Below, one piece after another: positions 2,348 through 62,966 of a stretch of 64,000 bases of DNA (position 1 is the stretch's first letter; every line of letters begins with the position of its first letter). Position numbers and translations under genes: made by a program. This DNA is from Prevotella sp. (lineage in GTDB: Bacteria > Bacteroidota > Bacteroidia > Bacteroidales > Bacteroidaceae). A model generated the notes under the pieces. That model was not told the origin of the DNA. It saw nothing but the letters and a program-made list of their open reading frames with translations, and ran no database searches. The stretch covers positions 62,001 through 126,000 of the forward strand of contig JAFZAP010000054.1 of the NCBI GenBank assembly GCA_017557185.1, written 5' to 3'.

Positions 2348-3574
2348 ATGAAATACTACCTGATAGTTGGCGAAGCCTCTGGCGACCTGCATGCCTCACA
2401 TCTGATGCGGTCGCTGCAGCAGGAAGACCCCGAGGCACAGTTCCGTTTCTTCGGCGGCGACCTGATGTCGGCTGTCGGCGGTATCCGTGTGCGACACTAT
2501 AAGGAACTGGCCTACATGGGATTCATTCCTGTGCTCATGCATCTGCCAACAATCTTCCGCAATCTGAAATTCTGCAAGCAGGACATCACACAATGGCGAC
2601 CCGATGCCGTAATCCTCGTCGACTATCCTGGCTTCAATCTGAAGATTGCAAAATATCTGCACAAGGAAAGAATCAAGGCGCAAAAGGCTTCCTCCCTGCA
2701 GGGAAGGGCTGGGGTGGGGTTCCCTCAGATTTACTACTACATCTCGCCGAAGATTTGGGCTTGGAAAGAATGGCGTATCCGCAACATCAAACGTGACATC
2801 GATCAACTGTTTTCCATCCTTCCTTTTGAAGTGGATTTCTTCGAGCATAAGCACCATTACCCCATCCATTACGTCGGCAACCCCACTGCTCACGAGGTGC
2901 GCGAGTTTCGAAAGAAGGCTTACTCTTCCCTCCTTACGGGGGAGGGTTCTTTCTCCGCTGTCGCTATGAAAGCGGCGGAGCCGAGCGGGGGTGGGGCTCC
3001 CCTCATCGCCCTTCTGGCAGGCTCGCGCAAACAAGAAATCAAAGACAACCTGCCGGCGATGATAGAGGCTGCTACTCCTTATGCTTCAGATTATCAGCTC
3101 GTTGTAGCGGGTGCACCTTCTATCGATGAAGAATACTATGCCCCGTTCATCGAAGGAAAGCCCGTCACGCTGGTCATGAATAAGACCTACGAACTGCTCT
3201 CGCAGGCTACGGCAGCCCTTGTCACCAGTGGGACGGCAACACTCGAGACCGCACTCTTCGAGGTGCCACAGGCGGTGTGCTACAAGACGCCTGTGCCGCG
3301 TCTCATCCGCTTCGCCTTCAATCACATCATCAAGTGCCGCTATATCTCGCTCGTCAACCTTATTGCTGATCGCGAAGTGGTGCCTGAATTGTTGGCCGAC
3401 CGTTTTTCAGTTGAAAACATCCGAAACGAACTGCGACGCCTGTTGCCTGGACATGATGCCCGCACGGCCATGCTTTTCGATTATCGCATCGTCCAGAAAA
3501 AACTAGGTGGCGACATTGCACCTGACAATGCCGCCCGCCTGATGGTTCACTACTTACGTTGCCCGAAAGGATAA
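2348..3574 (+). CDS. lpxB: Lipid-A-disaccharide synthase LpxB with two in-frame repeat insertions
   Basis: GT19 glycosyltransferase that joins UDP-diacylglucosamine and lipid X to form the lipid A disaccharide at the inner membrane. GEASGDLHASHLM at the N-terminus, VDYPGFN, YYYISPKIWAWK and LLAGSRKQEI are all recognisable. The protein is 408 residues against a usual 375-385. The excess is explained by two low-complexity segments encoded by G/C-rich palindromic repeats. One interrupts the link between IAKYLHKE and YYYISP (about residues 112-130). The other precedes IALLAGSR (about 193-218). Both keep the frame and fall in loops between conserved blocks. Activity is probably retained because lipid A synthesis is normally essential. 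Confidence 0.95.
   Translation: MKYYLIVGEASGDLHASHLMRSLQQEDPEAQFRFFGGDLMSAVGGIRVRHYKELAYMGFIPVLMHLPTIFRNLKFCKQDITQWRPDAVILVDYPGFNLKIAKYLHKERIKAQKASSLQGRAGVGFPQIYYYISPKIWAWKEWRIRNIKRDIDQLFSILPFEVDFFEHKHHYPIHYVGNPTAHEVREFRKKAYSSLLTGEGSFSAVAMKAAEPSGGGAPLIALLAGSRKQEIKDNLPAMIEAATPYASDYQLVVAGAPSIDEEYYAPFIEGKPVTLVMNKTYELLSQATAALVTSGTATLETALFEVPQAVCYKTPVPRLIRFAFNHIIKCRYISLVNLIADREVVPELLADRFSVENIRNELRRLLPGHDARTAMLFDYRIVQKKLGGDIAPDNAARLMVHYLRCPKG
2685..2724 (+). repeat. G/C-rich palindromic repeat inside lpxB (copy 1)
   Basis: CTTCCTCCCTGCAGGGAAGG, then CTGGGGTGGGG. The same layout (palindrome plus GGGGTGGGG tail) recurs between genes at 15957 and 19694. It is translated in frame as a Ser/Gly-rich loop. 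Confidence 0.75.
2925..3001 (+). repeat. G/C-rich palindromic repeat inside lpxB (copy 2)
   Basis: CCCTCCTTACGGGGGAGGG at the left end and GGGGGTGGGGCT at the right end enclose a second inverted repeat (CTCCGC ... GCGGCGGAG). It is translated in frame just before the conserved LLAGSRKQEI block. Confidence 0.75.
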
Positions 3575-3624
3575 GAAGGTTAGAGCTATTGTATTCTTAT
3601 AAGCGTAACTTTCGTACTTGCCGT

Positions 3625-8428: not shown

Positions 8429-11400
8429 TTATTGTATGTTCATTTCGATGAACGAACGCAGTTGCTGAGCTCCCTGATGGTTGATGTCCAAGGCTTCCAC
8501 CTCAGCCAAATACTTCAGGGCATGCTCTGTGTCGCCCATGCCGTAATAGCCGAGGGCAAGCATATACTTGCAATGGATTATGTTCTTGACATCGAGTTCA
8601 GAAAGCTGATGCTCGCCACTGCCTTCCCAGATGAGCAGATCGGGCAGTGATACGGCGAAATAGTCCATGACCTGCTTTTCGAAGAGGTGCTGCTTGCCGT
8701 AGTTGAGCAGGCGGAAGAAGCGCCCGCGGGCTTCGTCCTCGCGTCCTAATCGGCGAAGGGCCATACCCTGATAGAAGATCTTGTCGGGCTTTGCGTCGTT
8801 GTAATACATGGCGGCAGCTGGCTCCTGTGGACCAACGGTAGCCTTCTCCCAGCATTCGCGGGCTTTCTCTGTGTTACCCTGAGCCTCATAGGCGAGCCCG
8901 AGGAAGTAATAGAAGTCGTTCTCTTGAGCACCAAAGAGCTTGCCTTCACCCAGATGAGGAGGATACTCCAGACATTCGCTGAGAAGGCGGATAGCCTTTT
9001 CAATTCCAGTTATTTCGTTGAGGCTTCTTTTCGCTAACTCCACCCTGCAAATCTGATACTGTGCCGAAACCTTACCTTCGCCACCTTCCCACGGGTGGAA
9101 CGTGTGGGCGTCGAGTTCCTTCATGGCCTCTTCGTAATGGCCCGTCTGGTTGAGCAGGGTGATCACCTCCAACACAAGATCGTCGCGCTGCTGTATCAGT
9201 TTCGGATATTTCTGCAGGAAGTCCAAACGTTCCTGATGTGGATGGTGCAAACGTTTGCACAGCTGGTCGAGCTCCATCAGCACACGTGCGTCTTTCTTGT
9301 CGAGACTAAAGGCGCGCTCCATGTCTTCAAGAGCGCGGACGCTGTCGCCCTGTTTGTTGAATCGTGCAAGGGCGATGTTGCGCCAGACCGTTGGGAAAGT
9401 CGGGTCGAGTTGTGCCGACTGTTCCCAGTTCTCAATGGCGAGGTCGTACTGGCGCTTGTCGTAATAGAGACAGCCCAGATAGTAAGGAGCCTTGCTGCCT
9501 TTCGGGTTTGTGGCTTTAGCCGATTCCAATACCAACACATCCTCCAATCGGTTGGGGAAGCAACAGTAGCTGTCAGCTTCCTCGGCCTCCTCGAAGAGAG
9601 CTTTCGCCTCGTCGGGCTTCCCTTGATGAAGCTTGAAATAGCCCAGATAATACGATGTGAGCGGCGAGTCCTTCTTCAGCTTCTTTGCCACTGCAGGGAT
9701 TGTCAGCACTTGTTCCGCCTCTTCCCACAAGCCGGCTTGTGCATAGTCGAGGGCCAACTCGTGATAGTTATAAACGTTGCCATGCATCATCTCCACGATT
9801 TCCTTCAGCACGTCCTTGTCTTTGGTGAGCAGATATTGTTCGTAGAGAATACCATAGTTGAAGCGATCCAGCCGTAGCGACTCTTTGATGAGCGTCAGCC
9901 GTTCGTTCAAATCCTGCGAACTGCCCATCTGCAGGGTTCCCTTCTGTTTGCTTTCCTGTATTTTCCGCAGCACGACGGCCTTTAGCGCACGGGCCTTGTG
10001 GTTGCAGGTGTTGAATATAAGACAGCGGTTCAGTTCGTCGAGGGCATCGGCAAATCGTTTTTGTGCCACGCTGATGCAGGCTGCCTCGAAGTAGCCGGCA
10101 TCGGCCCACGCCTTGTTCCATGTCGATTTCCAGAAGAGTTCGTAGGCCTGCTGTGGCTGGTGCAGGTATTTCAGCGTGAGAGCGAGGTTGAAGATGGCTT
10201 CGCCATCGTAGGGATTCGGGTTCCGTCTCTGCCAGATCCTGACGGCACTGCGCAGATAGCCTTCCGCCTTGTCGAAGCGTCCTCGGCGAAGATACCACAG
10301 ACCCGTCTGGTTCAGGCAGCGCACGTCGTCGGGGTCGCGGCGCAGAGCTTCTTCATAATAGTCGAGAGCCGACCACGTGGCGTGGCGGTATTGTTCCAAG
10401 TGCAGACCCGTAAGAAATAGCTGGTCGTTGGTCTTCGTCTCCGTTGGCGGCAGTGCGGCCTCGGCGGCATCGGGAATGGGACGGATTTCGTCGGGTTCGG
10501 CCATCCATATGAAGCCCCGCCCCGACCCTCCCCCGTTGGAAGGGAGGATAGTGAAACTCAGCTCACTCATTTCTGCCTCTTTTACGTCCACAGTTTGTTC
10601 GAATACTTCCTCTGGCGAGAGCGTCACCAATTGTTCATAATATGTTTCTCCCTTCTTGCCGCACAACTTCATCTGCACCGTCTGCTTCGATGTCGCCAAC
10701 ACCTTGAAGGTCACCAACTTTCCCCTCTCTGCGGAAGAGGCCGGGGCGAGGCTCTCAATATTAAAGATGAAATCCTTCGATGCCTGTTTCACGATGCCGA
10801 TTTCCCTATACGGCATGAAATACTGCACGAACTGCTTCTCCTCATAGGGCATGAGCCAAGCGAAGTCGGGCTGGTTCTCTGTGTACACACCCGCCATCAG
10901 CTCGATATAGGGGCGGAAAATCCCTTCCCGACCTCCCTCCGTAGGGGAGGTATCCATCACTCCCCCTTCGGGGGGGAGGTGGAGGGGGGCTTTGTCCGTT
11001 AGATTCCTGTCCCAGGCCCGTCCGAAGTCGCCGTTGCCCCATGTCCATTGCTTCTTGCCAGGCGAGTAGTGATGGCTGGCCACGTGAAGCATGCCGCCAT
11101 GAGTGTCGTTCTCATAGCCGCCTTCGAAGTCGTACTTTGAGTTCACCGCCATATAGCTCGTCGGCACGGGGATATTCTTGTAGTTCGAGATGTCAACGCC
11201 TGCCGAATAGTCCATCTTGTAATAGGTGCCTGTGGCGATGGGAAATGTCGAGACGGCACGCTTGCCGTGGTCAAAGACCGCATTCACGTCGGGTGGAAAC
11301 ACACTCTGGTATTCGTCGTTCACCTCGACAGCAGGGTTCGCCCACCAGAGGAACGTCTGTGGCAGCGGCGTGCGGTTCGACACGCGACCCTGAATCTCTA

Positions 11401-15948: not shown

Positions 15949-15956
15949 GAAACTTT

Positions 15957-15995
15957 CTCCCTCCCGGGGGAGGGTTGGGGTGGGGCTCTCTTCTC
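15957..15995 (+). repeat. G/C-rich palindromic repeat, intergenic
   Basis: CTCCCTCCCGGGGGAGGG followed by TTGGGGTGGGGCTC, a near-consensus copy of the family that also interrupts lpxB. It lies just after the serine hydrolase stop. Confidence 0.8.
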
Positions 15996-19177: not shown

Positions 19178-19456
19178 TTTTTCTGCAATTTTCATTCCTT
19201 ATCGTCTAAAAAAGTCAAAGATAACCCAGAATTCGTACAACCATCATAGTTCATAAAACAAGAAAAGGCAATAATATATGAGGTGCGGCCACATCATCCG
19301 GCTGTACCTCATGCTTTATATGATGCGAAGCGGTGTTTGAACCCCCGTTAGCAATGCTTTTGTGTGGCTGGAGCGATGTGATTGAAGAGCCAAAGCATTA
19401 CTCTAGTTTTGCAAATGAATTGAGCCTATTTTGTAATTTAACTTGTTTTGTTCAGT
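19178..19456. other. Intergenic stretch with one imperfect inverted repeat, no gene seen
   Basis: No credible reading frame was found. An imperfect inverted repeat at about 19278-19315 pairs ATGAGGT with ACCTCAT and GGC with GCT on either side of a short loop. No T-run follows. Its role is unknown. Confidence 0.4.
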
Positions 19457-19566
19457 AAATTAAGTTATTTTACCGTGCAAATTAAGTTAATTTACTTAGC
19501 AAATTAAGTTAATTTACTTAGCAAATTAAGTTATTTTACTCATCAAATTAAGTTAATTTACTGAAC
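19457..19566 (+). repeat. Tandem array, five units of exactly 22 bp (A/T-rich)
   Basis: Five head-to-tail 22-bp units. Each begins AAATTAAGTTA and contains the core AAATTAA-G-TTAATTT, a palindrome with one central base, followed by a variable end such as CTTAGC or CTCATC. A degenerate sixth unit may precede it. The 22-bp period is not a multiple of three, so the array is not coding. Confidence 0.85.
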
Positions 19567-19700: not shown

Positions 19701-19729
19701 GAGGAGGGCTGGGGTGGGGCTTCCCTACT
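19694..19729 (+). repeat. G/C-rich palindromic repeat, intergenic
   Basis: GACCCCGAGGAGGG then CTGGGGTGGGGCTTCCC, a half copy with the conserved GGGGTGGGGCTT tail, abutting the 22-bp array and the stop of the metallopeptidase gene. Confidence 0.6.
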
Positions 19730-24025: not shown

Positions 24026-24028
24026 GTG

Positions 24029-24065
24029 GCCTCACCCCAGCCCTCCCCAATAGGGAGGGAGCCAT
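24029..24065 (+). repeat. G/C-rich palindromic repeat, intergenic (reverse orientation)
   Basis: CCTCACCCCAGCCCTCCCC followed by AATAGGGAGGGAGCC. It is a reverse-oriented copy compared with those at 15957 and 19694, and faces the copy at 24251. Confidence 0.75.
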
Positions 24066-24250: not shown

Positions 24251-24284
24251 GACCCTCCCTATTGGGGAGGGCAGGGTGGGACTT
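24251..24284 (+). repeat. G/C-rich palindromic repeat at the 3' end of the DUF349 gene
   Basis: CCCTCCCTATTGGGGAGGG then CAGGGTGGGACTT, directly after the minus-strand stop codon of the DUF349 gene. Confidence 0.75.
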
Positions 24285-30949: not shown

Positions 30950-30996
30950 TACCCCCCTCCCGGAAGGGGGGCTTCTCCCCTACGGGGAAAGGGTAG
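30950..30996. repeat. Two G/C-rich palindromic repeats, intergenic
   Basis: ACCCCCCTCCCGGAAGGGGGG and then TTCTCCCCTACGGGGAAAGG, two short palindromes in series between the converging HAD and pepD genes. Confidence 0.65.
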
Positions 30997-32942: not shown

Positions 32943-34088
32943 TTATAGCCTCTCTCCACTCTCCTCTCTCCACTCTCCTCTCTCCACTCTCCTCTTTATA
33001 CTCAGGGCCACCCACGCATACACTCCCAGTGCCACCACCAGCAGCGTCTGCACGGAGTGTACGATGAGCACGAAGTACAGAGCGTCAGTCTCGCCGACGC
33101 CATAAAGGATGAGCATAGTCTTCACAGCGAAGTGCCACGGCCCGGCACCATTGGGAGTTGGCACGATCACGGCGATGCTTCCCACGATGAACGTCACCAG
33201 CGCACACGACATCCCTAGTCCTGCCGTAGCATCGAAACAGAAGAATGTCAGGTAGTAGTGCAGGAAATAGCATCCCCAGATGGCGAGTGTGTAGAAGATG
33301 AACAGCGGGATGTTCTTCACATTCTTCAACGACATCACACCCTGCCAAATGCCTGCCAATGATTCTTTCACCTTATTATATATGAGGGAGGTGTGGGAAC
33401 TATGATGTTTTGATGCAGTTTCCTCAACAACGGAATGAGTGGAGGGATGGGGTGGTAATATAGCCTCTCGCCCCCATTTGGGGGGATAGGGGGGCTCGGG
33501 AGGTGTGGAGGGGGCCTTCTTAATCAGAAACCATCCTACTCCCACGATGGCAACAAGGCAAACGATGGTTACCACCCAGCCGGTGGTGGTGAAACGATGA
33601 AAGATGGCATCAAGGCTTGTGCCCGTCTCCTCGAAAAAAGTCATGAACACGCGGAACTGTGTTACAAACGTCAGTGCCGCTATCGCCAACACCAACAGCG
33701 AGTCGATGGCACGCTCGGTGACCACAGTTCCTAAAGCCTTCGGAAACGACACTCCGTCTTTCTGGTGCAGAACACCGCAGCGAGCAAACTCACCTATACG
33801 CGGAATCACCAGACTCGCCGCGTAGCTCAGGAAGATGCTATGCACGCGCACCGATGCCCGCGATTGCTCACCCAGCGGCTCTAGAGTCTGTCGCCAGCGC
33901 CAACCGCGGAAGGCCTGTGCAAGCACACCGAACGGAAACGATAGCAGCATCCATGTCCAAGACATCTCATGGAGTAGCACCTCGCGAACACGTCCGAAGT
34001 CGAAACCACGGTACATCCAGTACAGGATGGCACCGCCCAGCACGAGCGACGCCACCACGTTCAGTGTGTTCTTGCCTTGTTTCGTCAC
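32943..34088 (-). CDS. Membrane protein of the LPG synthase/flippase-like (UPF0104) family
   Basis: A 381-residue polytopic protein resembling the transmembrane half of lysylphosphatidylglycerol synthase. Recognisable blocks are RGWRWRQTLEPLG, YAASLVIPRIGEFARC and ALGTVVTERAIDSL, and near the end the PTPNGAGPWHFAVKTML segment. Function in lipid translocation is inferred from the family only. GTG 34088 is preferred over the upstream ATG (34496) because a promoter (34116-34146) lies between them and homology begins here. Residues about 190-235 are a Pro/Ser/His-rich stretch encoded by palindromic repeats. The last dozen residues derive from a 14-bp tandem repeat. Confidence 0.82.
   Translation of the reverse strand: MTKQGKNTLNVVASLVLGGAILYWMYRGFDFGRVREVLLHEMSWTWMLLSFPFGVLAQAFRGWRWRQTLEPLGEQSRASVRVHSIFLSYAASLVIPRIGEFARCGVLHQKDGVSFPKALGTVVTERAIDSLLVLAIAALTFVTQFRVFMTFFEETGTSLDAIFHRFTTTGWVVTIVCLVAIVGVGWFLIKKAPSTPPEPPYPPKWGREAILPPHPSTHSVVEETASKHHSSHTSLIYNKVKESLAGIWQGVMSLKNVKNIPLFIFYTLAIWGCYFLHYYLTFFCFDATAGLGMSCALVTFIVGSIAVIVPTPNGAGPWHFAVKTMLILYGVGETDALYFVLIVHSVQTLLVVALGVYAWVALSIKRRVERGEWREESGERL
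32950..32991 (-). repeat. Three tandem 14-bp repeats at the 3' end of the flippase-like gene
   Basis: The plus strand has TCTCTCCACTCTCC three times, covering the last codons of the gene. A change in copy number would alter the C-terminal tail and the stop. Confidence 0.8.
33466..33520 (-). repeat. G/C-rich palindromic repeat inside the flippase-like gene
   Basis: CTCTCGCCCCCATTTGGGGG followed by GATAGGGGGGCTCGGGAGG. It is translated in frame as a Pro-rich loop between two membrane segments. Confidence 0.75.
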
Positions 34089-34296: not shown

Positions 34297-35247
34297 ATGA
34301 AGCAAGTAAAGCCTAAGAAAAGCCTCGGCCAGCACTTCTTGACCGATCTCACCATCGCCCGCCGCATCGCCGACACGGTCGATGCATGTCCCGATATCCC
34401 TGTTCTTGAGATAGGCCCTGGCATGGGTGTGTTAACCCAGTTCCTCATCACAAAGCCCCGTAAGGTGGCTGCTGTCGAGATCGACCGCGAGTCCATTGCT
34501 TATCTCCGTCAGCACTTCCCGGTATTCTCTTTGCAACCAGTTTCCACCCTTCCCAATAGGAGTGGGGTCGGGGGAGAGGCTCCTATGGGAGAGGGGCCGG
34601 GGGAGAGGCTTCTCATCTCTGGCGACTTCCTTCGTATGGATCTCCACAATCTTTTTGGTGGAAAGGAGTTCGTGCTCACTGGAAACTACCCTTACGACAT
34701 CTCCTCGCAGATATTCTTCAAGATGCTTGACAACCGCGACCTCATCCCTTGTTGTACGGGCATGATCCAGCGAGAGGTAGCCCTTCGTATGGCGGCGCAG
34801 CCAGGATCCAAAACCTACGGCATCCTCTCCGTTCTTATCCAGGCATGGTACGATGTTGAATATCTCTTTACTGTCGAGCCATCTGTCTTCAATCCGCCAC
34901 CCAAGGTGCAGTCAGCCGTTATCCGCATGACGCGCAACGATGTTACCTTCCTCGGCTGCGACGAACAACTCTTCCGCCGTATCGTGAAGACCGTTTTCAA
35001 CCAGCGTAGAAAGATGCTGCGTGTCTCCCTGCGCCAGATTCTCAGTGCCGATGCAATAAACGCACTCCAAACTTCACTTACAATTCCCCTCCCTACGGGG
35101 GAGGGGTCGGGGGTAGGGTTTACTTCCCTTCCTAAAGGAGAGGGGGCACTCTCCACTCTCCACTCTCCACTTTACTCACCCTCCGTCCCGAGCAGCTCTC
35201 CATTCCTCAGTTTGTCGACCTCACCAACCATATTGCTCCCCTTCTAA
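34297..35247 (+). CDS. rsmA: 16S rRNA dimethyladenosine transferase RsmA/KsgA, repeat-invaded, C-terminus out of frame
   Basis: SAM-dependent enzyme that dimethylates two adenines in helix 45 of 16S rRNA. Motifs are SLGQHFL at residues 8-14, VLEIGPGMGVLTQFL, TGNYPYDISSQIF (active site) and FNPPPKVQSAVIRM. ATG 34297 follows an AAAAGG ribosome site and gives the standard N-terminus. Two repeat insertions are translated: residues about 82-106, and a C-terminal one from about 263. After the second, the frame ends in a Ser/Pro-rich tail. The family's conserved C-terminus (RPEQLSIPQFVDLTN) is intact in another frame at 35184-35255. The protein is 316 residues against a usual 260-270. Confidence 0.93.
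   Translation: MKQVKPKKSLGQHFLTDLTIARRIADTVDACPDIPVLEIGPGMGVLTQFLITKPRKVAAVEIDRESIAYLRQHFPVFSLQPVSTLPNRSGVGGEAPMGEGPGERLLISGDFLRMDLHNLFGGKEFVLTGNYPYDISSQIFFKMLDNRDLIPCCTGMIQREVALRMAAQPGSKTYGILSVLIQAWYDVEYLFTVEPSVFNPPPKVQSAVIRMTRNDVTFLGCDEQLFRRIVKTVFNQRRKMLRVSLRQILSADAINALQTSLTIPLPTGEGSGVGFTSLPKGEGALSTLHSPLYSPSVPSSSPFLSLSTSPTILLPF
34545..34613 (+). repeat. Tandem G/C-rich repeat inside rsmA (first insertion)
   Basis: Two related copies: AGGAGTGGGGTCGGGGGAGA and then GGGAGAGGGGCCGGGGGAGA, both followed by GGCT. They are translated in frame just before LISGDFLRMDL. Confidence 0.75.
35083..35172 (+). repeat. Composite repeat inside rsmA (second insertion) with 7-bp tandem units
   Basis: CCCCTCCCTACGGGGGAGGG then GTCGGGGGTAGGG, a second short palindrome (CTTCCTAAAGGAGAGG), then three copies of CACTCTC (35148-35168). 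The last stretch can shift frame by slippage. Confidence 0.75.
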
Positions 35248-35918: not shown

Positions 35919-36076
35919 TCGTTCGCACCCTATTTCATTTCATTACACTTTTTTATCTTAAAGAAACACGGCAGCGATATCTGAACCAAAGGCGTTTTCC
36001 AGTATCTTCATGTCGTCTGCATGTTCATACTCGGCCTAATGTTATCGATCGCAGCCTTATCTTAAACGCTGTTGCA

Positions 36077-36245: not shown

Positions 36246-36329
36246 GCAGCTCCGCTGCCATGCATAGCTCCGCGACTTTAGAAACATAGTTCTATATCTG
36301 ACAAAAGTGTTAAATCGCTAAGCAACGGG

Positions 36330-36359
36330 TTTGCATATGAGATAAAAATAGTATTTTTG
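36330..36359 (+). promoter_or_regulatory. Promoter of the toxin-antitoxin pair
   Basis: TTTG at 36330-36333, an 18-nt spacer, then TATTTTTG at 36352-36359. Confidence 0.6.
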
Positions 36360-36385
36360 CAAAATAATAACCAATAATATAGACA

Positions 36386-36956: not shown

Positions 36957-37155
36957 TTTCTCGGCTTTAACAAATCGTCAGCAGGATGTTGACGAATTCG
37001 GTACGCGCGCGTTCCAAATCTTACCTGGAAACAACCAACTTTTCCAGGCCAAATATATGATGAACTATCTCCCATCCAAAGAAGAGTTGAGACGTGAGAT
37101 AGAGACGCAAAAGCATATCTTTGAGTTGCAGCATGGTGATGAAGAGGACCTATGA
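36957..37155 (+). pseudogene. Remnant of a gene C-terminus (perhaps DUF1016/YhcG-like)
   Basis: The frame ending at TGA 37153-37155 reads, among others, RAFQILPGNNQLFQAKYMMN and YLPSKEELRREIETQKHIF, a well-formed protein C-terminus without its own start. It recalls the tails of DUF1016-type nuclease-like proteins, whose usual form has LP(S/T)EEEL. The upstream 200-300 codons are missing; the DNA before it belongs to the toxin gene in another frame. The family assignment is from memory and weak; that it is a gene fragment is more certain. Confidence 0.5.
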
Positions 37156-37375
37156 TGCATAGCACTCGAAACCCGAAACTGCGACATTGTCGCTTTGAAC
37201 CGCCCTTTGGCATTGGACCATTCTGAACCATTCAAAACTATTCTAAACAGTATCCCATTGGAGTGGGGATCCTCTTACTCGCCCCTCTACTGCATTGAAC
37301 AGGATAAGGTTTTTTACCCAAACCCCATAATAATACACTAAAGGAAGGTGTATAACATATTAACTAAGTATTCAG
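37156..37375. repeat. Short hairpin-unit stretch before the ORF6N gene
   Basis: Contains stem GCGAC-att-GTCGC (about 37180-37192), then TTTGAACCGCCC and several TTC(T)GAACCATT-like repeats, relatives of the arrays at 36077 and 37990. Confidence 0.55.
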
Positions 37376-37969
37376 ATGGCGGATAATAAGAAAACCGAGA
37401 TAGCAAAGGAAATGAATACAGAATTGATGCCTGTAACCACTAAAGATGTGGAGCGACGTATGATTGTTTTGAGGAATCAGCCAGTGTTAATTGATGCTGA
37501 TGTGGCGGAGCTTTATGGTGTTCAGACTAAAGAGGTCAACCAAGCCGTGAAGAACAATCCGAATAAGTTTCCATTTGGTTACCTCTTCGAACTTGACAAA
37601 TATGAGAAAGCTGAGCTGGTCAAAAATTTTGACCACCTTAACAAACTCAAGTTCAGTAAGGTGGCGCCTACTGCATTTACTGAGCGTGGTCTTTACATGT
37701 TAGCTACGATTCTTAAAGGAAAACGTGCAGTCGAGACAACACTTGCGATTGTGGACACTTTCGTTCAGGTGCGAGAACTTGCCAGGACGATGGAAGCCTT
37801 GCAGAATGTGGAAGATGGTGGAACCCAGCAGCGTACACTGCTTCAGCGTACTGGCGACCTGCTTGCTGAAGTAGTGGGACACAATCTTAGTACGACAACT
37901 ACCGAGACAGAAATAGAACTAAATTTTGCAGTTGTAAAAATTAAACATAAGATAGTTCGTAAAGAATAG
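37376..37969 (+). CDS. ORF6N domain protein
   Basis: A 197-residue protein whose residues about 20-110 form an ORF6N domain (MIVLRNQPVLIDADVAELYG, FPFGYLFEL, AFTERGLYMLATILKG). This is a DNA-binding domain found in phage antirepressors and in many free-standing Bacteroidota genes. The C-terminal part is helical and carries no recognised catalytic domain. Function is unknown; phage-derived or defence-related roles are common guesses. It stands alone between two hairpin-unit arrays. Confidence 0.85.
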   Translation: MADNKKTEIAKEMNTELMPVTTKDVERRMIVLRNQPVLIDADVAELYGVQTKEVNQAVKNNPNKFPFGYLFELDKYEKAELVKNFDHLNKLKFSKVAPTAFTERGLYMLATILKGKRAVETTLAIVDTFVQVRELARTMEALQNVEDGGTQQRTLLQRTGDLLAEVVGHNLSTTTTETEIELNFAVVKIKHKIVRKE

Positions 37970-37989
37970 CATTTACGTGAGCTTACGCT

Positions 37990-38177
37990 TTGAACCGCCC
38001 GTAGGGCATTGAACTCTTGAACCGAAGGTCATCGACCGAAGCAGCGCTGATTTTTTTTAACTGCCCGTTTGCGCAATTGAACCCTTTGAACGTGCAAAGC
38101 ACATTGAACTGCGCATTGCGCATTGAACTGCGCCTCTGCGCTCTGGTGTGGTGCACGATAAAGCGAGAGAGATAACT
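37990..38177 (+). repeat. Hairpin-unit array, copy 2 of the long direct repeat
   Basis: Colinear with 36077-36245 through the landmarks TTGAACCGCCC, GGTCATCGACCGAAGCAGCG, CTGCCCGTTTGCGC and GTGTGGTGCACGA. It differs by an added linker and an added unit with core TGCGC-at-TGCGCA, showing that units can be gained or lost. Confidence 0.85.
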
Positions 38178-38308
38178 CTTGAACAGGCCGCAGGCCTATT
38201 TGAACTGCTGCTCCGCAGCCTTACACTTTTGAACTGTGCGAAGCACATTGAACTATTTGAACTGCAGCTTTGCTGCATTGATCCGCCAGCGTTGGGGGCT
38301 CTTATATA
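38178..38308 (+). repeat. Hairpin units with TTGAAC linker
   Basis: Continues the array with cores GGCC-gca-GGCC, TGCTGC-tcc-GCAGC, TGTGC-gaa-GCACA and CTGCAG-cttt-GCTGCA, each after a TTTGAAC-like linker. Confidence 0.75.
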
Positions 38309-38507
38309 GAGCACTGCTCCGTACCTTACAGAGCATAGCTCCATACCTCTATAGAGCACTGCTCTGTAACCTCTAGAGCATAGCTCCGTAACCTCCAGAG
38401 CACTGCTCCACAAGGTCTAAAGCATTGCTTTCCAACCTCAAAAGCATAGCTTTTCAACTCCGAAAGCATAGCTTTACGATTTCAAAAGGATAGCTCTCGA
38501 ACACTTG
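38309..38507 (+). repeat. Tandem array of nine 22-bp hairpin units
   Basis: Nine units start at 38309, 38331, 38354, 38376, 38398, 38420, 38442, 38464 and 38486. Eight are 22 bp and one is 23 bp. Cores go from GAGCA-c-TGCTC and GAGC-ata-GCTC to AAGCA-t-TGCTT and AAGC-ata-GCTT: the outer base changes on both sides together. Linkers (such as CGTAACCTCTA) are less conserved. Confidence 0.88.
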
Positions 38508-38570
38508 AACGGCCGAAGAACCTTGAACTGAAGGTCATCGACCGAAGTAGTGCTGTCACGCAGCGTGGTA

Positions 38571-38578
38571 TATCTTTG
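38571..38578 (+). promoter_or_regulatory. Promoter -7 element of the truncated RhuM-like gene
   Basis: TATCTTTG, with a start near 38585 and 38 nt of leader. Confidence 0.5.
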
Positions 38579-38622
38579 CAATCGCATAAATTTGGATAAC
38601 GTAAACGTGTAATTTCTCATTC

Positions 38623-38892
38623 ATGGAAGAGAACAAAATAATACTTTACGAGGACGAAGAGGGCAAGATAAACGTGAACGTGCGCTTTGCCGATGAAGAT
38701 GTTTGGCTGACACGCGAGCATCTTGCCGAGATTTATGCTACTACTCCTCAGAACATCAGTCTTCATGTCGGAAACATATACCAAGACAAAGAGCTGGATG
38801 AAGAAGGAACTCGAAAGAAATTCTTTCTTGTTCGCAAAGAGGGCAGTCGACAGGTACATAGAGGGATTGACCACCAGGGTTTAACTCTCTGA
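38623..38892 (+). pseudogene. Truncated RhuM-like gene
   Basis: An 89-residue reading frame matching only the N-terminus of RhuM family proteins, usually about 330 residues: EDVWLTREHLAEIYATTPQNI and KEGSRQVHRGIDH. Homology ends where family members continue with the conserved core, and the frame closes four residues later. The following 290 nt hold no continuation in any frame. A promoter is still present. It is most likely a decayed gene; a short functional protein cannot be excluded. Confidence 0.7.
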
Positions 38893-39156
38893 AAATCAGA
38901 TGGAAGACGATTTCGAAAGTCAATTTTCCCCAAACATATCCCAAACAACTGATATTAGATATTAGATGGGAAATCCAGTGGGAATCAGGTCTTTAAAGAC
39001 TTTCATACATGATGTCAAAATTTCTTATTCTGTCAACCAGTAATAACTCACTTAGTCGATGCAAATATACAAAGATAATTTGAAATATACAAAGGACATA
39101 GTATTAAATAAATAGAAAAATTCGTGCAATATATGGTAAGTCTCGTAAACTTTTTG
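38893..39156. other. Gene-free stretch after the RhuM remnant
   Basis: A/T-rich, without a credible frame or recognised hairpin. A short direct repeat GATATTAGATATTAGATG is at about 38950-38968. Confidence 0.4.
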
Positions 39157-39164
39157 TATTTTTG
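39157..39164 (+). promoter_or_regulatory. Promoter -7 element of the mntA-hepT pair
   Basis: TATTTTTG; start near 39171 makes ATG 39186 the first codon. Confidence 0.55.
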
Positions 39165-39185
39165 CACCAATCAAATATTTGGGAT

Positions 39186-39479
39186 ATGAACAAGAAGTCA
39201 GTATTAAACCGCCTTTCGTCATTAAAGGCTCCCCTGATGGCAGTGGGAGTATCGCAACTGGGCTTGTTTGGCTCGACGGTACGTGGTGAGAACACCCGTA
39301 AGAGTGATATTGACATTCTGATTGACTTCAATGCCGATCAAGAGACATATCTGAATTTCATCAATGCTTGTAGCATACTCCAGTCAGCCTTCGGCAAGAC
39401 CAAACTTGATGTTGTTACCAAGAAGGGACTAAGCCCCTATATAGGTGAGACTATTCTAAAAGAAGTTGAATATGTATAA
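39186..39479 (+). CDS. mntA: MntA-type minimal nucleotidyltransferase (antitoxin)
   Basis: A 97-residue nucleotidyltransferase with the motif GLFGSTVRGENTRKSDIDILIDF: GS and DxD are the metal- and nucleotide-binding residues. In MNT-HEPN systems it adds AMP to the HEPN partner and neutralises it. ATG 39186 is preferred over the TTG at 39162, which lies inside the promoter. The hepT gene overlaps its end by 8 nt, the usual arrangement. Confidence 0.88.
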   Translation: MNKKSVLNRLSSLKAPLMAVGVSQLGLFGSTVRGENTRKSDIDILIDFNADQETYLNFINACSILQSAFGKTKLDVVTKKGLSPYIGETILKEVEYV

Positions 39480-39837
39480 GTCTTACGTCCCATATCTTCT
39501 GCACATCCTTGACGAGTGCCTTTATGTGCGTTCTGTTATTAAGGAAGATATGCAGAAAGAAGAGTTCCTGCGTGATGAGACGCTGAAGCGGGCAGTAACC
39601 CGTAGTCTTTCCATCATAGGAGAGGCAAGTAAGAAGATACCTGCCGATGTGAAGTATGCCTGGCAGAGTATATCATGGCGTGAGATGGCTGGTATGCGGG
39701 ATAAACTCGTTCATGACTATATGGGAGTCAACTACCACATCGTCTGGGATGTAGCTAAGAATATCATCCCTACACTCACAGGGCAGATACAAGCTATAAT
39801 CGAAACTTATAAGGAAACGGAATCCCAAAGCTCATGA
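39472..39837 (+). CDS. hepT: HepT-type HEPN ribonuclease (toxin)
   Basis: A 121-residue helical HEPN protein with the active-site motif RDKLVHDY (RX4HXY) near residues 82-89, followed by GVNYHIVWDVAKNIIP. It is a toxin RNase that MntA modifies at the Tyr. SLSIIGEASKKIP is another typical segment. ATG 39472 is chosen instead of TTG 39466. The pair looks intact, in contrast to its neighbours on both sides. Confidence 0.88.
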   Translation: MYKSYVPYLLHILDECLYVRSVIKEDMQKEEFLRDETLKRAVTRSLSIIGEASKKIPADVKYAWQSISWREMAGMRDKLVHDYMGVNYHIVWDVAKNIIPTLTGQIQAIIETYKETESQSS

Positions 39838-39998
39838 TAATGAAGCGATAACGAAAGAAGATGCCCTTAGGAAACTGGTAACGATAAGCATTTTGATGTT
39901 TAAAATAGAGAAGCGATTCATTGCTGAATAGTTTATCTATACTCCTAAGGTGTCAAGAAATAGGATGACACAGAAATAGAAGAGATCAAATTTGAGTT

Positions 39999-40235
39999 AT
40001 GAATAAGAAGGATAATCTTTGTTGTTTGTCACTCATTATCAGCCCAATAGCTTTAATACTGAGTATTATTTCTACAAGGGGCTTGCCGGAGAAGAAAGTG
40101 GTATCATGGGTTCTAAACCGCACTATCATTATCTTTCGGACAAGTTAGGGATTACATGGGATGACCTGATGAAACGGATAAAAATTGTGACATGCCTACA
40201 TCCAAGGTGCATATAGTCATTGACAGAAGTTAATG
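39999..40235 (+). pseudogene. Frameshifted small gene of unknown family
   Basis: Three overlapping frames together give one protein-like sequence. It starts MNKKDNL in the frame of ATG 39999 and continues FVTHYQPNSFNTEYYFYKG to WDDLMKRIK in the frame open from 40019 to 40216. It then runs DMPTSKVHIVIDRS in a third frame ending at 40233-40235. The natural gene would encode about 75 residues. The family is not recognised. Two shifts in so short a gene suggest decay, though the central frame could still be made from a TTG start. Confidence 0.5.
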
Positions 40236-40261
40236 TTTTAGGGTATATTCTTTTAACTATT

Positions 40262-40358
40262 ATCATTACCTTGAACTTTTGAACGTGCGAAGTACATTGA
40301 ACTTTTGAACCGCGACTCTGTCGCCTTTGAAACTCGAAACCAGAAACTCGAAACGGCC
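40262..40358 (+). repeat. Hairpin units with TTGAAC linker
   Basis: ACCTTGAACTTTTGAAC, core GTGC-gaa-GTAC, ATTGAACTTTTGAAC, core CGCGAC-tct-GTCGC, then CTTTGAAACTCGAAAC. Nearly the same opening as 36180-36205. Confidence 0.75.
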
Positions 40359-40507
40359 TTACACCTTACATGTTGCATCGCAGCTTTACACCTTTACACG
40401 AGCCAAGGCTCCTTCCCCGCAGCTTCGCTGCTTTACACGAACCGCAGGTACTTTACCCGCAGCTCCGCTGCTTTACACACCTTACACGCCCCTTGGGGGC
40501 CTTACCC
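40359..40507 (+). repeat. Hairpin-unit array with TTTACAC linker
   Basis: About seven units of 20 bp with linker TTTACAC or TTTACCC and perfectly paired cores: GAGCC-aa-GGCTC (40400), GCAGC-ttc-GCTGC (40419), GAACC-gca-GGTAC, GCAGC-tcc-GCTGC (40459), GCCCC-tt-GGGGC (40488). It ends 47 nt before the first gene of the polysaccharide locus. Confidence 0.85.
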
Positions 40508-57346: not shown

Positions 57347-57388
57347 CCTTAATTTGATGGTGTAATGTATTAAATATTGCAATTTGAT

Positions 57389-59615: not shown

Positions 59616-59616
59616 A

Positions 59617-61023
59617 ATGAAGGTTCTTGCCCTCGCTCCATATTGTTACCCAGAGTCTATTTCGAGTACGCATCTTGATGAGAATTTGAATGAAGCGTAT
59701 TCGCAGGCTGGTATTGTTCGCGAAATATATGCTCCATATCCATGTCGTGGAATTGACCAGGCAACTAGAGAAAAATACAAGAAAATAAGATATGAAGAGC
59801 GCTATAATGGCTATCAGCAAATTCACCGATTCCCTCTTTACAAGGAAGGTGTCGGGGTTTTTTCTAGGGCATTGCGCTATATTATTTGTATGTTTCTTCA
59901 TTTCTATTATGGAGTTAAGTCAAAAGATATAGATGTTATGCTCTCAGGAAGTACGCCTCCAACACAAGGATTGTTGTTTGGTGTACTTAAAGCAATAAAG
60001 AAAGTCCCTTTCGTTTATGCATTGCAAGATATCTTCCCAGACTCTCTCGTAAGTACTGGCATTACTCGTAGGGGGTCTGTTTTGTGGAAGATAGGAAGGG
60101 TGATAGAGAACTTCACTTACAGGAATGCAGACAAGATAATCGTAATCTCCGAGGACTTCAAGCGAAATATCATGGCGAAAGGGGTGCCTGAGGAGAAGAT
60201 AGAGGTTATCTACAACTGGGTAGACGAAGAGGCAGTGGTAGATGTACCACGGGCAGAAAATAAACTATTCGATAAATATGGACTGGACCGCAGCAAGTTC
60301 TACGTGACCTATAATGGCAACATCGGGCTGACACAGAACATGGATATGTTGCTGGAGGTGGCGAAGGAGCTAGGAAGCCCCACCCCTGCCCTCCCCCGTA
60401 GGGAGGGAGAAAGTAGCCCTACCCAGGGAATGAGTCATGCGGGCGGTTCAGAGGCTGCTTCGAAGCTGTTAGGAAAGGTTGAGATTAGTTCGAGTGGTTC
60501 AAATAGTTCGAACGATTCCGAACCATTCGTAACCGCTCATAACCGTTCAATTCACTTTGTGCTGGTGGGCGAGGGTGCCTATAAAGAACAGGTGGAACGG
60601 ATCATTAAGGAGCAGAATATCACGAATGTGACGATGTTGCCGTTCCAGCCGTATGAGGACATCTCGCATGTGTTCTCACTGGGTGATGTGAGTCTGGTGA
60701 TATCAAAGCCTGGGGTAGGGGCGAATAGTGTGCCGAGCAAGACGTGGAGCATTATGTCGGCATCGCGACCTGTGCTGGCGAACTTCGATGAGAATGAGTT
60801 GAAGACTATCATCGAAGAACACCAATGTGGAATCTTTACGAAGGCTGGAGATAAGGAAGCGTTTAAGGAGGCAATCTTGAAATTGTATAACAATCCCGAG
60901 CTATGTAAGGAATACGGCAAGAATGGCCGGCAGTTCGTGATAGATAACTTGACGAAGGATGTGGGGACGAGGAAGTATGTGGAGGTTATTAAGAGAGTGG
61001 CTCTTGAAGGTAAAGAGGGGTAA
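59617..61023 (+). CDS. Family 4 glycosyltransferase (WbuB-like) with a long repeat insertion
   Basis: A 468-residue GT-B transferase: APYCYPESISSTHLDENLNEA at the N-terminus, YALQDIFPDSLVSTGI and VISEDFKRNIMAKGVP in the middle, and VISKPGVGANSVPSKTWSIMS then VLANFDENEL near the end. The family usually has about 400 residues; here about 60 extra residues (about 253-312) come from repeats between LLEVAKEL and HFVLVGEGAYK. The first half of the gene is A/T-rich and the second half G/C-rich, with a change near 60.1 kb, suggesting a recombination join. It begins one base after the GT2 stop. Confidence 0.85.
   Translation: MKVLALAPYCYPESISSTHLDENLNEAYSQAGIVREIYAPYPCRGIDQATREKYKKIRYEERYNGYQQIHRFPLYKEGVGVFSRALRYIICMFLHFYYGVKSKDIDVMLSGSTPPTQGLLFGVLKAIKKVPFVYALQDIFPDSLVSTGITRRGSVLWKIGRVIENFTYRNADKIIVISEDFKRNIMAKGVPEEKIEVIYNWVDEEAVVDVPRAENKLFDKYGLDRSKFYVTYNGNIGLTQNMDMLLEVAKELGSPTPALPRREGESSPTQGMSHAGGSEAASKLLGKVEISSSGSNSSNDSEPFVTAHNRSIHFVLVGEGAYKEQVERIIKEQNITNVTMLPFQPYEDISHVFSLGDVSLVISKPGVGANSVPSKTWSIMSASRPVLANFDENELKTIIEEHQCGIFTKAGDKEAFKEAILKLYNNPELCKEYGKNGRQFVIDNLTKDVGTRKYVEVIKRVALEGKEG
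60377..60412 (+). repeat. G/C-rich palindromic repeat inside the GT4 gene
   Basis: GCCCCACCCCTGCCC, then CTCCCCCGTAGGGAGGGAG. It is followed up to about 60542 by a second repeat type rich in GTTCGA, GGTTCAAATAGTTCGAACG and AACCGTT. Confidence 0.8.
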
Positions 61024-61045
61024 AGAGAGGTGAAGAAGGGTTGAC

Positions 61046-61432: not shown

Positions 61433-61571
61433 AGGGCGTTTTGAAAGTAAAGAGAGATAAAGAGGGTTGAAGAACGACCTAAATACCTTCTCAACCTTTC
61501 TCAACATCAAGTGTCTCAACCCATCTCAACCTTTCTCAACAATTAAAAATGAAATCAAACCAATTATTTAT
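61433..61571. repeat. Low-complexity repeats before the second DegT gene
   Basis: AAGTAAAGAGAGATAAAGAGG, then CCTTCTCAACCTTTCTCAAC with four further TCTCAAC copies. These are simple direct repeats without a coding frame. Confidence 0.6.
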
Positions 61572-62966
61572 ATGAACATAAAGTTACGAAATATTCCGTT
61601 TTCACCTCCTGATATGACGGAGCAGGAGGCACAAGAAGTGAGGGAGGCGATACTTTCTGGATGGATCACGACCGGGCCGCGAACGAAGAAGCTGGAACGG
61701 CAAATATCGGAATTTGTTCACACTGAAAAGACAGTGTGCCTGAACTCTGCGACTGCATGCATGGAGATGGTGTTGCATTTGTTGGGAGTCGGACCGGGTG
61801 ATGAGGTTATCGTACCTGCCTATACCTATACGGCAACAGCTTCGGTGACGAAACATGTGGGTGCAAAGCTGGTGATGGTGGACAGCCAGAAGGATAGTGT
61901 GGAGATGGATTATGACCAGTTGGCGGATGCTATTACCGAACATACGAAGGTCATCGTGCCTGTGGATTTGGCTGGTATTGTGGCTGATTATGATCGTGTG
62001 TTTGAAATCGTTGAACAGAAGAGGCACTTGTTCCGACCATCTAATGCTTTACAGGCAAAGATAGGCAGAATCATCGTGTCGGCAGACTGTGCTCACTCTT
62101 TCGGTGCAAGCCGAAAAGGGAAGATGGCTGGGGAGATTGCTGACTTCAGTTCGTTCAGCTTTCATGCTGTGAAGAATTTCACTACCGCCGAAGGCGGAGC
62201 GATGACGTGGAACCTGCCTTTCGGGGATGAAAAAGTGGAGCCTACCCCTAACCTGCCCTCCGTCGCAAATGGGGAATTTGCTCCCCTTTGTGGAGCCGCA
62301 GCCACACCGGTGGCTACTCTGAAGACCCCAGTCGCCCTGAAGGGAAGAGATTCCGTGAAGGATGGATGGACGGTAAATGGATATTATGGTATTCCTTATA
62401 TTGAAGGGGAGACGTGGAATGAGTTCTTGTATAGATTATCGCAACTGTTCTCGCTCCATGGGCAGAACAAAGATGCACTTGCCAAGACGAAGTTGGGTTC
62501 TTGGGAATATGACATCATTGGTCCGTGGTATAAGTGTAACATGACTGATATCATGGCTGCGATGGGACTGGTGCAGTTGGAACGCTATCCGGAGTTGCTG
62601 AAACGTCGCCAATGGATAGTAGCAAAATATAATGAGGCTTTTGCAGAGTTGCCCGTTGCGGTTCTTGACCATAAGGGTGCCGATCATTGTTCTTCGCACC
62701 ACTTGTATTTGGTTCGTCTCTTAGGGAAAACCCGGGAGGAGACCAATCGTGTCATAGAACGGCTTGCAGTAAAAGGTGTTGCCGCAAACGTGCACTATAA
62801 GCCGCTGCCGATGATGACAGCATATAAAGCATTGGGGTTTGACATCGAGGATTATCCGAATGCTTACCATCTCTTCGAAAATGAGATTACGCTACCGCTG
62901 CATACGAAACTGACGGATGAGGATGTGGAATATGTCATCGCAAGCTTCAAAGAAGCAATAGAGTAG
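61572..62966 (+). CDS. DegT/DnrJ/EryC1 aminotransferase (PglE/WbpE-like) with repeat insertion
   Basis: A 464-residue PLP-dependent aminotransferase for 4-keto sugar nucleotides. RNIPFSPPDMTEQEAQEV at the start, NSATACMEMVLHLLGVG, VSADCAHSFGAS and FSSFSFHAVKNFTTAEGGAM (PLP-Lys in VKN) are typical. Length exceeds the usual 375-410 residues because of a translated repeat at about residues 223-260, directly after the PLP loop. ATG 61572 is the first start giving the conserved N-terminus. With the CapD/PglF-like gene downstream it could make a UDP-4-amino-4,6-dideoxy-HexNAc (bacillosamine-type) precursor. Confidence 0.88.
   Translation: MNIKLRNIPFSPPDMTEQEAQEVREAILSGWITTGPRTKKLERQISEFVHTEKTVCLNSATACMEMVLHLLGVGPGDEVIVPAYTYTATASVTKHVGAKLVMVDSQKDSVEMDYDQLADAITEHTKVIVPVDLAGIVADYDRVFEIVEQKRHLFRPSNALQAKIGRIIVSADCAHSFGASRKGKMAGEIADFSSFSFHAVKNFTTAEGGAMTWNLPFGDEKVEPTPNLPSVANGEFAPLCGAAATPVATLKTPVALKGRDSVKDGWTVNGYYGIPYIEGETWNEFLYRLSQLFSLHGQNKDALAKTKLGSWEYDIIGPWYKCNMTDIMAAMGLVQLERYPELLKRRQWIVAKYNEAFAELPVAVLDHKGADHCSSHHLYLVRLLGKTREETNRVIERLAVKGVAANVHYKPLPMMTAYKALGFDIEDYPNAYHLFENEITLPLHTKLTDEDVEYVIASFKEAIE
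62238..62345 (+). repeat. Composite repeat inside the second DegT gene
   Basis: AGCCTACCCCTAACCTGCCC then TCCGTCGCAAATGGGGAA, an inner inverted repeat AGCCGCAGCCACACCGGTGGCT-like (about 62294-62315), and a closing GAAGGGAAGAG. It is in frame and resembles the second lpxB insertion in layout. Confidence 0.65.

What the first reader, a model, noticed from the sequence alone, without database searches (positions are those of the whole stretch)
2685..62345. One palindromic repeat family lies between genes and, in frame, inside at least seven conserved genes
The element has the layout CCCTCCCC-loop-GGGGAGGG plus a GGGGTGGGGCTT tail. Intergenic copies are at 15957, 19694, 24029, 24251, 30950, 62966 and 63033. 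Copies translated in frame are in lpxB (two), the GH35-GH2 gene, the DUF5107 gene (three), the flippase-like gene, rsmA (two), a GT4 gene and a DegT gene. In each gene the extra residues sit between conserved blocks. This resembles the protein-coding Rickettsia palindromic elements, which are established; I do not know of such a description for this group. The sequences are direct observation; mobility is inference.
Basis: partly seen in the sequence, partly recalled or inferred. Interest (0 to 1): 0.88.

Follow-up and report, generated by a model that had tools for sequence, protein, structure and literature searches.

The report
Gene-invading triplex palindromes with own nuclease
Short GC-rich palindromes scattered through this rumen Prevotella, many of them translated inside genes, look like the ends and leftovers of a small mobile DNA element that carries its own cutting enzyme (DUF559) and sits in frame inside genes, even important ones.

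Summary
The repeat is real and genome-wide: 148 places against 2 in the control. In a 450-kb sample 36 of 77 good copies lie deep inside predicted genes. Against relatives, 59 of 64 non-zero length differences at sites inside genes are multiples of three.

It is not a RAYT/REP or Rickettsia-type element by its tags. Its tail mirrors the hairpin's purine arm with A or T opposite A, the layout of an intrastrand DNA triplex, a known bacterial motif whose spread was unexplained (PMC4666352).

New: DUF559 genes (homing-endonuclease/Vsr fold) have such hairpins on both sides in 22 of 27 genus and 22 of 26 phylum loci, Y1 transposase loci 0 of 22. DUF559 counts follow repeat counts (Spearman 0.53); Y1 counts do not. 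Whole units sit in frame inside genes: 468 bp in PriA, absent from the 24 relatives read. The window's copies are best read as derivatives. Transposition itself is inferred.

The parts
2685..2729 (+). Element (subfamily A, partly decayed) in frame in lpxB, loop 1
   Evidence: profile hit 2691-2722; 42 bp longer than G094 and G178 orthologues; alignment with 29 orthologues
2923..3001 (+). Composite element in frame in lpxB, loop 2: hairpin 2928-2946, an inner dispersed repeat about 2943-2988, tail 2988-2999
   Evidence: 51 bp longer than G178, 33 than G094, 24 than G231, 4 than G203
10509..10549 (-). Element in the DUF5107 gene; orthologues have a loop of equal length here
10931..10991 (+). Two neighbouring hairpins (10931-10951, 10960-10978 with tail) in the DUF5107 gene, adding residues against G199 and G203
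   Evidence: (D10)
15954..15990 (+). Intergenic element just after a beta-lactamase-like gene ending at 15948
19703..19725 (+). Half element (3' arm and tail), intergenic
24027..24061 (-). Intergenic element, one half of an inverted pair
   Evidence: (I4)
24253..24283 (+). Intergenic element, other half of the inverted pair
   Evidence: (I4)
30952..30971 (.). Degenerate intergenic hairpin without a canonical tail
33471..33500 (+). Hairpin and tail inside the 42-residue insert of the flippase-like gene (gene on the minus strand)
34543..34612 (+). Two tandem weak copies (subfamily B) in frame in rsmA; the G199 orthologue has a longer array at the same site
   Evidence: (D16)
35082..35119 (+). 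Copy near the 3' end of rsmA that, with the repeats after it, shifts the frame of the native C-terminus
60372..60412 (-). Copy in frame in a GT4 glycosyltransferase gene, between two GT domains
62230..62352 (+). Separate ~105-bp composite repeat in frame in a DegT gene
62962..62999 (-). Element overlapping the end of the DegT gene
63032..63050 (+). Weak partial copy, intergenic
   Evidence: (E 2.5)

Best explanation
The repeats are intrastrand-triplex palindromes: a hairpin with a pyrimidine 5' arm and a purine 3' arm, a short linker, then a tail that mirrors the purine arm. They are the ends, and short derivatives, of a small mobile element: [palindrome, tail outward] - DUF559 endonuclease gene - [palindrome, tail outward], 468 bp in the PriA case. 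DUF559 has the fold of Vsr and of the homing endonuclease I-Bth0305I. The unit is found between genes and also inside them in the host reading frame, so that the host protein gains a nuclease domain, or (solo, paired or tandem copies) a Pro/Gly-rich linker. Frame-breaking insertions are mostly removed by selection; survivors sit in loops, near gene ends and beside stop codons. Shown: anatomy, flanking by hairpins, in-frame position with empty sites in relatives, length conservation, co-occurrence with DUF559. Inferred: that DUF559 nicks or cuts DNA to move or copy the unit, that the folded triplex is what it recognises, that short copies arise by internal deletion or move in trans, and that the fused proteins are made and work.
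For: Genome-wide family with strong controls. Deep in predicted genes: 36 of 77 copies in the own sample, 30 of 44 in G199, 24 of 32 in G203. Frame: 38 of 41 gains of 18 bp or more and 59 of 64 non-zero differences of any size are multiples of three where the other species' site is inside a gene. Empty sites: 42 bp in the own MnmA-type gene, absent in G199 and G203; an inverted pair at another site of that gene in G199, absent in own and G203. Pfam names 19 of 19 own host proteins scanned outside the window, of 20. LpxB: elements in 8 loops of 7 of 81 entries, 0 in the first 300 or last 400 bp of 108. DUF559: elements in 27 of 30 genus loci, 17 of them as an outward inverted pair around the gene, against 4 of 32 Y1 loci with none flanking; Spearman 0.53, p=1.2e-5; 14 of 14 genomes with 10 or more copies have DUF559, 23 of the other 46. 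Hairpins on both sides: 22/27 genus, 22/26 phylum, far edges 0/27 and 1/26, Y1 0/22, LpxB 0/66. Full units in frame inside PriA, LeuRS, an ABC-F ATPase, a DegT gene and others. Own C2 ends match the inverted pair in Mfd at 97-100% over 31-35 bp. Same-site series full unit / short pair / solo. Mirror rule 0.955 against 0.832 for shuffled tails, maximum of 500 shuffles 0.866. Fold matches 3hrl, 3r3p, 1vsr.
Against: No movement was observed; the species compared are about 80% alike, so boundaries are good to a few bp. 7 of 32 genomes with an exact copy have no DUF559 hit (G022 with 7 and G032 with 8 copies), and G030 has 5 DUF559 hits with no exact copy. Both ends match in four of six own units (C2, C6, C115, C42), not in C62 and C113. 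Only 62 of 121 unique hairpins near DUF559 had a G-rich outward tail. The PriA-type ends have no solo copy in the 450-kb sample. On ten plasmid loci outside the phylum hairpins lie on both sides in 3. An exact B-type pattern is in only 10 of 296 phylum genomes while DUF559 is in 170. PF04480 does not ring in the E. coli control genome, though E. coli is known for such motifs. PMC4666352 saw no triplex by footprinting in vivo. The rsmA C-terminal copy breaks the frame. In N-terminal fusions the host may start translation inside the frame. Many genomes are MAGs, though G016 (one contig) also has DUF559 in a long frame.
Confidence: 0.78

Rival explanations
1. The repeats are ordinary REP elements moved by a RAYT (Y1 tyrosine transposase), and DUF559 is a bystander.
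For: The own genome has three Y1_Tnp hits, two over the cut-off; REPs inside ORFs are known (PMC3733652 section 15); inverted pairs resemble REPINs.
Against: Y1_Tnp counts do not follow element counts (Spearman 0.08, p=0.53); 0 of 22 Y1 loci have pyrimidine-arm hairpins on both sides; G047 (38 copies) and G046 (16) have no Y1_Tnp hit; no GTAG or CGTC end tag. Y1 loci do have inverted flanks of another type.
Confidence: 0.06
2. DUF559 genes are not mobile as units: the hairpins are terminators, or repeats that attract or tolerate the nuclease gene, and both gather in the same permissive places.
For: Intergenic copies abut stop codons (19 of 42 within 9 bp); two of six own units have non-matching ends.
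Against: The same pair of hairpins bounds DUF559 deep inside PriA, LeuRS and other frames where no terminator belongs, and relatives lack the whole stretch; hairpins are on both sides across the phylum.
Confidence: 0.1
3. The short copies spread without DUF559, by replication slippage or template switching at triplex or hairpin DNA (genomic instability as proposed in PMC4666352); DUF559 units are rare riders.
For: Tandem copy number varies between species (RsgA, rsmA); seven element-bearing genomes lack a DUF559 hit; E. coli keeps such motifs without PF04480 in the control genome.
Against: Counts follow DUF559; solo and paired copies match the ends of full units and sit at the same sites as full units in other species.
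Confidence: 0.14
4. The G-rich strand works as a G-quadruplex rather than a triplex; the mirror symmetry is a by-product.
For: Arm plus tail form four G runs.
Against: The A/T positions of the tail mirror those of the arm across arm families (96 of 104 arm A residues faced by A or T), which a quadruplex does not require. It bears on the fold, not on the DUF559 link.
Confidence: 0.15

Closest known systems
[quoted passage not shown] earlier PIT elements), PMC4666352
   Same: Same three-block layout; [quoted passage not shown] forms a triplex in vitro; inverted pairs occur.
   Different: There the E. coli motif is always intergenic and no mobility function was found near it; here about half the copies are inside genes, in frame, and the motif bounds DUF559 units. 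Seen: abstract and outline, passages, section 15, part 1 of the discussion.
REP/REPIN with RAYT (REPtron), PMC6006769 and PMC3733652
   Same: Short dispersed palindromes, single or as inverted pairs, flanking a nuclease gene; REPs inside ORFs are reported.
   Different: Other nuclease superfamily (DUF559, not HUH/Y1), no GTAG/CGTC tag, mirror-repeat tail, whole nuclease units in frame in host genes. Seen: outline, section 12 and passages; passages and section 15.
Rickettsia palindromic elements (RPE)
   Same: Palindromic repeats translated in frame inside conserved genes.
   Different: Other sequence and no CGTC tag (tag as given in PMC3733652). The original paper was not held; otherwise recalled.
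Homing endonucleases such as I-Bth0305I (3r3p)
   Same: Fold of the nuclease; presence/absence at a site inside important genes.
   Different: No intein domain in ten DUF559 fusions; the unit stays in the protein; it has palindromic ends and many short derivatives.
Vsr and Vsr-like DUF559 proteins (PMC12907096, passages)
   Same: PD-(D/E)XK fold and DUF559 domain.
   Different: There a mismatch-repair role linked to cytosine methylation is proposed, no flanking palindromes are described in the passages seen.

Membership tests
REP (GTAG/CGTC superfamilies) | GT[AG]G or CGTC tetranucleotide at one end of the palindrome | tested here: not met
   By inspection copies begin CTCC.. and end GGGGTGGGGCTT or like; GTAG occurs only in the loop on the other strand
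REPtron (RAYT + REP) | Y1/HUH transposase gene flanked by the repeat, co-occurring with it | tested here: not met
   4 of 32 Y1 loci with any element and none flanking, no correlation; hairpins on both sides 0 of 22
Intrastrand triplex motif (TM/PIT) | Hairpin plus third block following the antiparallel purine-motif rule | tested here: met
   62 G-tailed elements score 0.955 against 0.832 shuffled; 59 other hairpins lacked a G-rich tail and were not scored
Intrastrand triplex motif (TM/PIT) | Physical triplex formation | not testable with these tools
   No experiment here; PMC4666352 shows it in vitro for the E. coli motif
Intrastrand triplex motif (TM/PIT) | Intergenic position (as stated for E. 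coli) | tested here: not met
   36 of 77 own copies deep in predicted genes
Rickettsia palindromic element | In-frame insertion in genes with empty orthologues | tested here: met
Rickettsia palindromic element | CGTC end tag and RPE sequence | tested here: not met
   tag by inspection; RPE sequences not compared
Intein / intron homing endonuclease | Self-splicing intein domain or intron around the nuclease | tested here: not met
   No intein domain in 10 DUF559 fusions at E<=1e-6; intron RNA not tested
IS200/IS605 | HUH Y1 transposase inside the unit | tested here: not met
   Units read here encode DUF559
Transposable element in general | Observed movement or insertion polymorphism within a species | not tested
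   One genome per species was available

The most novel reading that the evidence does not exclude
A phylum-wide, perhaps bacteria-wide, class of mobile elements uses a Vsr-like DUF559 nuclease and triplex-folding ends, and sits in frame inside essential genes as a translated passenger (intein-like without splicing); the abundant bacterial triplex repeats, including those known from E. coli, cyanobacteria and Neisseria, are its non-autonomous relics.
Probability: 0.6. Interest if true: 0.95.

Novelty: categorically new. Interest (0 to 1): 0.9.

Why it matters
Triplex-forming repeats are widespread in bacteria, and the 2015 survey (PMC4666352, passages and discussion) found no mobility function near them. 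A cognate nuclease would give them an origin and a testable mechanism, suggest a role for the large DUF559 family, and reveal a mobile element that uses coding sequence as habitat. In-frame insertions in MnmA, Mfd, TopA, RsgA, LpxB and PriA are natural experiments on how proteins tolerate new loops and domains, and warn that such orthologues can be misread as fusions or errors.

Tried and rejected
RAYT as mobiliser: rejected on co-occurrence and flanks. The plain flank inverted-repeat score did not discriminate, because Y1 loci also exceed it (14 of 22, against 16 of 27 genus and 8 of 26 phylum DUF559 loci); the pyrimidine-hairpin test did. G-quadruplex reading: not excluded, see rivals. The pattern with 8-bp arms and a 5-nt loop found nothing in the window. 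HPWEGGEG and PHLGEG in DUF5107 looked like copies but are native. L281 was read on the wrong strand in alignment A2 and left out of A3.

What was dropped before counting: two loci without a readable LpxB and 27 of 108 entries in which both loops could not be delimited (94 of the 108 proteins are distinct), pairs with a gain under 18 bp, a target gap over 130 bp, flank matches under 60 bp or under 65% identity, and all but the best pair per cluster and species (191 raw pairs); one search repeats it without the gain limit, and then 5 of 64 are not multiples of three (98, 68, 35, 5 and 4 bp). One search left out loci shorter than 3.2 kb; the phylum loci are the best-scoring ones, one per genome, not a random draw. 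One search, five of 29 relatives where my motif did not match., 59 of 121 hairpins without a G-rich tail. One search listed 25 of 37 plasmid records and I read ten. The gene caller is my own small script and misses AT-rich genes at 41-60 kb.

Absence from print rests on ten searches of an open-access library; of the 14 papers that hold 'DUF559' I saw the listing and passages of one (PMC12907096). The biology of PIT elements, Vsr and I-Bth0305I beyond tool and paper texts is recalled.
Full report
WHERE IT IS. The window is contig C42:62001-126000 of a 3.35-Mb genome in 116 contigs. The closest named relatives of its LpxB are Prevotellaceae MAGs (RUG12665 82%, RUG12005 78%, RUG178 77%), so it is a Prevotella, by those names from the rumen.

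THE REPEAT. The main subfamily reads CTCCCTCCC-loop-GGGAGGG-NN-GGGGTGGGGCTT. Others have arms such as CCCCTCGCC/GGAGAGGGG with tail GGGGGTGAGG (B), CCCCTCCC/GGGAGGGG with GGGGGTGGG (C) and CCCTTCCC/GGGAGGG with GGGGGTAGGCT (D). The simple palindrome is at 148 places in the own genome against 2 for the reversed pattern; 99 exact against 0, and 32 of 60 genus genomes have it, with loops that differ by genome. In 450 kb of own sequence four profiles give 99 elements at E<=1 against 3 in the reversed control.

INSIDE GENES. At E<=0.01, 36 of 77 own copies, 30 of 44 in G199 and 24 of 32 in G203 lie at least 25 codons inside a predicted gene (gene calls by my own script). Pfam names 19 of 19 own host proteins scanned, of 20 outside the window: RsmD, pectinesterase, RsgA, MnmA, UDP-GlcNAc epimerase, fucosidase, XseA, TopA, an RsmF-type methyltransferase, PAD, histidine phosphatase, Mfd, DacB, GH43, a DAO/Pyr_redox oxidoreductase, a PrmC-like methyltransferase, GH130, pectate lyase and a BNR protein. 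The translated elements read mostly SPTPNPSPVGRGE, SPTPALPRREGE or SLPTGEGRGGAS.

EMPTY SITES AND FRAME. Own, G199, G203 and four more relatives were compared. Where one species has an element and the other species' site lies inside a predicted gene, 38 of 41 gains of 18 bp or more are multiples of three; by cluster, 23 of 26 show only multiples. Without the size limit 59 of 64 non-zero differences are multiples of three, the others being 98 (the real frame shift in rsmA), 68, 35, 5 and 4 bp. Outside genes 2 of 4 are multiples. Examples: 42 bp in the own MnmA gene, absent from both relatives; an inverted pair of 66-69 bp at another site of the same gene in G199; 120 bp of tandem copies in an AMP-binding protein. 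RsgA holds two, three and four tandem copies in own, G199 and G203. In LpxB, elements occur in 8 loops of 7 of the 81 entries in which both loops could be delimited, and nowhere in the ends of the 108 genes tested. In the AlphaFold model the second own insert has pLDDT below 50 and the first about 70-80. Intergenic copies abut stop codons (19 of 42 within 9 bp) and are rare between divergent genes (3 of 45; such gaps make up 21% of intergenic bases).

Of eleven in-gene copies, one (GH35-GH2) was not found, one (second rsmA) breaks the frame, one (DegT) is another repeat, and the DUF5107 and first rsmA copies are in frame but not clean insertions against the nearest relatives.

THE NUCLEASE. 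In G203 a WbpM-like gene contains, in frame, a DUF559 domain between arrays of these elements, where G199 has only a short pair. DUF559 (PF04480) is in 37 of 60 genus genomes and 170 of 296 phylum genomes. In the genus its counts follow exact element counts (Spearman 0.53, p=1.2e-5; 14 of 14 genomes with 10 or more copies have it, 23 of the other 46); Y1_Tnp counts do not (0.08). Profile elements occur in 27 of 30 DUF559 loci; in 17 of them a '-' copy lies just upstream and a '+' copy just downstream, tails outward; in Y1 loci 4 of 32 have one copy (the 17 counted from its list). A sequence-independent test, pyrimidine-arm hairpins within 350 bp on both sides, gives 22 of 27 genus and 22 of 26 phylum loci, against 0 and 1 at the far edges of the same loci, 0 of 22 Y1 loci and 0 of 66 LpxB loci. 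On ten chosen plasmid loci of cyanobacteria, Alphaproteobacteria and Deinococcus, hairpins lie on both sides in 3, and five show the canonical tail on at least one side.

UNIT ANATOMY. Read outward, the ends are hairpin, linker, G-rich tail; in four of six own units (C2, C6, C115, C42) both ends match each other, in C62 and C113 they do not. In PriA the unit is 468 bp, 156 codons, with inverted ends, and PriA domains lie on both sides. Of 120 genus genomes only the own one gave a full-length hit in the list shown; in relatives the two halves match separately, mostly abutting, and the 24 relatives whose site I read lack the unit. Pfam also shows DUF559 inside LeuRS, an AAA helicase, an ABC-F ATPase, after an epimerase domain and inside a DegT gene, and before IspF, RpiB and guanylate kinase; the helicase site recurs in two species and guanylate kinase in four. 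For the N-terminal cases translation might start inside. 31 of 70 full-length genus hits are in open frames of at least 250 aa. The ends of the own C2 unit are 97-100% identical over 31-35 bp to the two halves of the inverted pair in own Mfd, and the C42 ends recur elsewhere, as expected of deletion derivatives.

THE FOLD. DUF559 keeps D62, E73 and G76 in all 27 sequences and D75 and H79 in at least 90%. By sequence it matches 3hrl (2.9e-20) and 3r3p (6.4e-4); the model (mean pLDDT 87) matches 3hrl (4.7e-8), the homing endonuclease I-Bth0305I 3r3p (4.3e-5) and Vsr 1vsr (0.011).

THE TRIPLEX LAYOUT. In 62 terminal elements with G-rich tails the tail mirrors the purine arm, with A or T opposite 96 of 104 arm A residues; score 0.955 against 0.861 for the direct reading and 0.832 for shuffled tails (maximum of 500: 0.866). 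Arms and tails co-vary: GGGAGAAGGG with GGGTTGAGGG, GGAAGGG with GGGTTGG, AAAGGGGG with GGGGGATT. This is the rule for an antiparallel purine-motif third strand. PMC4666352 describes such motifs in more than 260 genomes, a triplex in vitro but not in vivo, a strictly intergenic E. coli motif, and no mobility function near it.

READING. The most economical account is a mobile unit with triplex-type ends and a DUF559 nuclease, whose full units, inverted pairs, tandem arrays and solo ends are spread through this genome and which persists in coding sequence because in-frame insertions survive. How DUF559 acts (nick, break and copy, or single-strand insertion) is inference. I call it categorically new because the nuclease family, the ends and the coding habitat together match no kind known to me; the searches behind that are listed in Tried and rejected.

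Noticed in passing
window 35140-35180: Tandem heptamers CTCTCCA just after the second rsmA element; a change in their number would switch the frame of the RsmA C-terminus, so it may be phase-variable or an assembly error.
   Followed up: partly
window 36074-40480: Another family of short palindromic units with TTGAAC or TTACAC spacers in long intergenic stretches; the same type fills the WbpM loop of the own genome (L022 about 490-620), where G203 carries a DUF559 unit and G199 a short pair.
   Followed up: partly
window 19408-19566: AT-rich 22-bp tandem repeat forming a long inverted repeat; it recurs many times in G199.
   Followed up: no
window 27801 and 35725: Repeated TTTTTTTTGTAC.TTTGCA stretches, like the Bacteroidetes promoter (recalled).
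   Followed up: no
L144, L061, L068, L055, L043 (LpxB loops): In other species the same LpxB loops hold low-complexity repeats such as HIPHSTPHSTFHIPHST, a second kind of coding repeat in these loops.
   Followed up: no
L323-L326; L308 and L322; L313 and L315: DUF559 units at apparently the same site in several species (guanylate kinase start, IspF start, an AAA helicase), suggesting preferred targets.
   Followed up: no
L278 and other phylum loci: Many phylum DUF559 hits lie in open frames of 1,000-1,480 aa; the hosts were not identified.
   Followed up: no
L221 (G559, another family): A frame that reads like leucyl-tRNA synthetase with an in-frame element TLSSGEGRGEA (identity by my reading).
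   Followed up: no
L016 (own C7:68887): A Y1 transposase gene beside a TrmB-like gene that carries the ~105-bp composite repeat in frame.
   Followed up: partly
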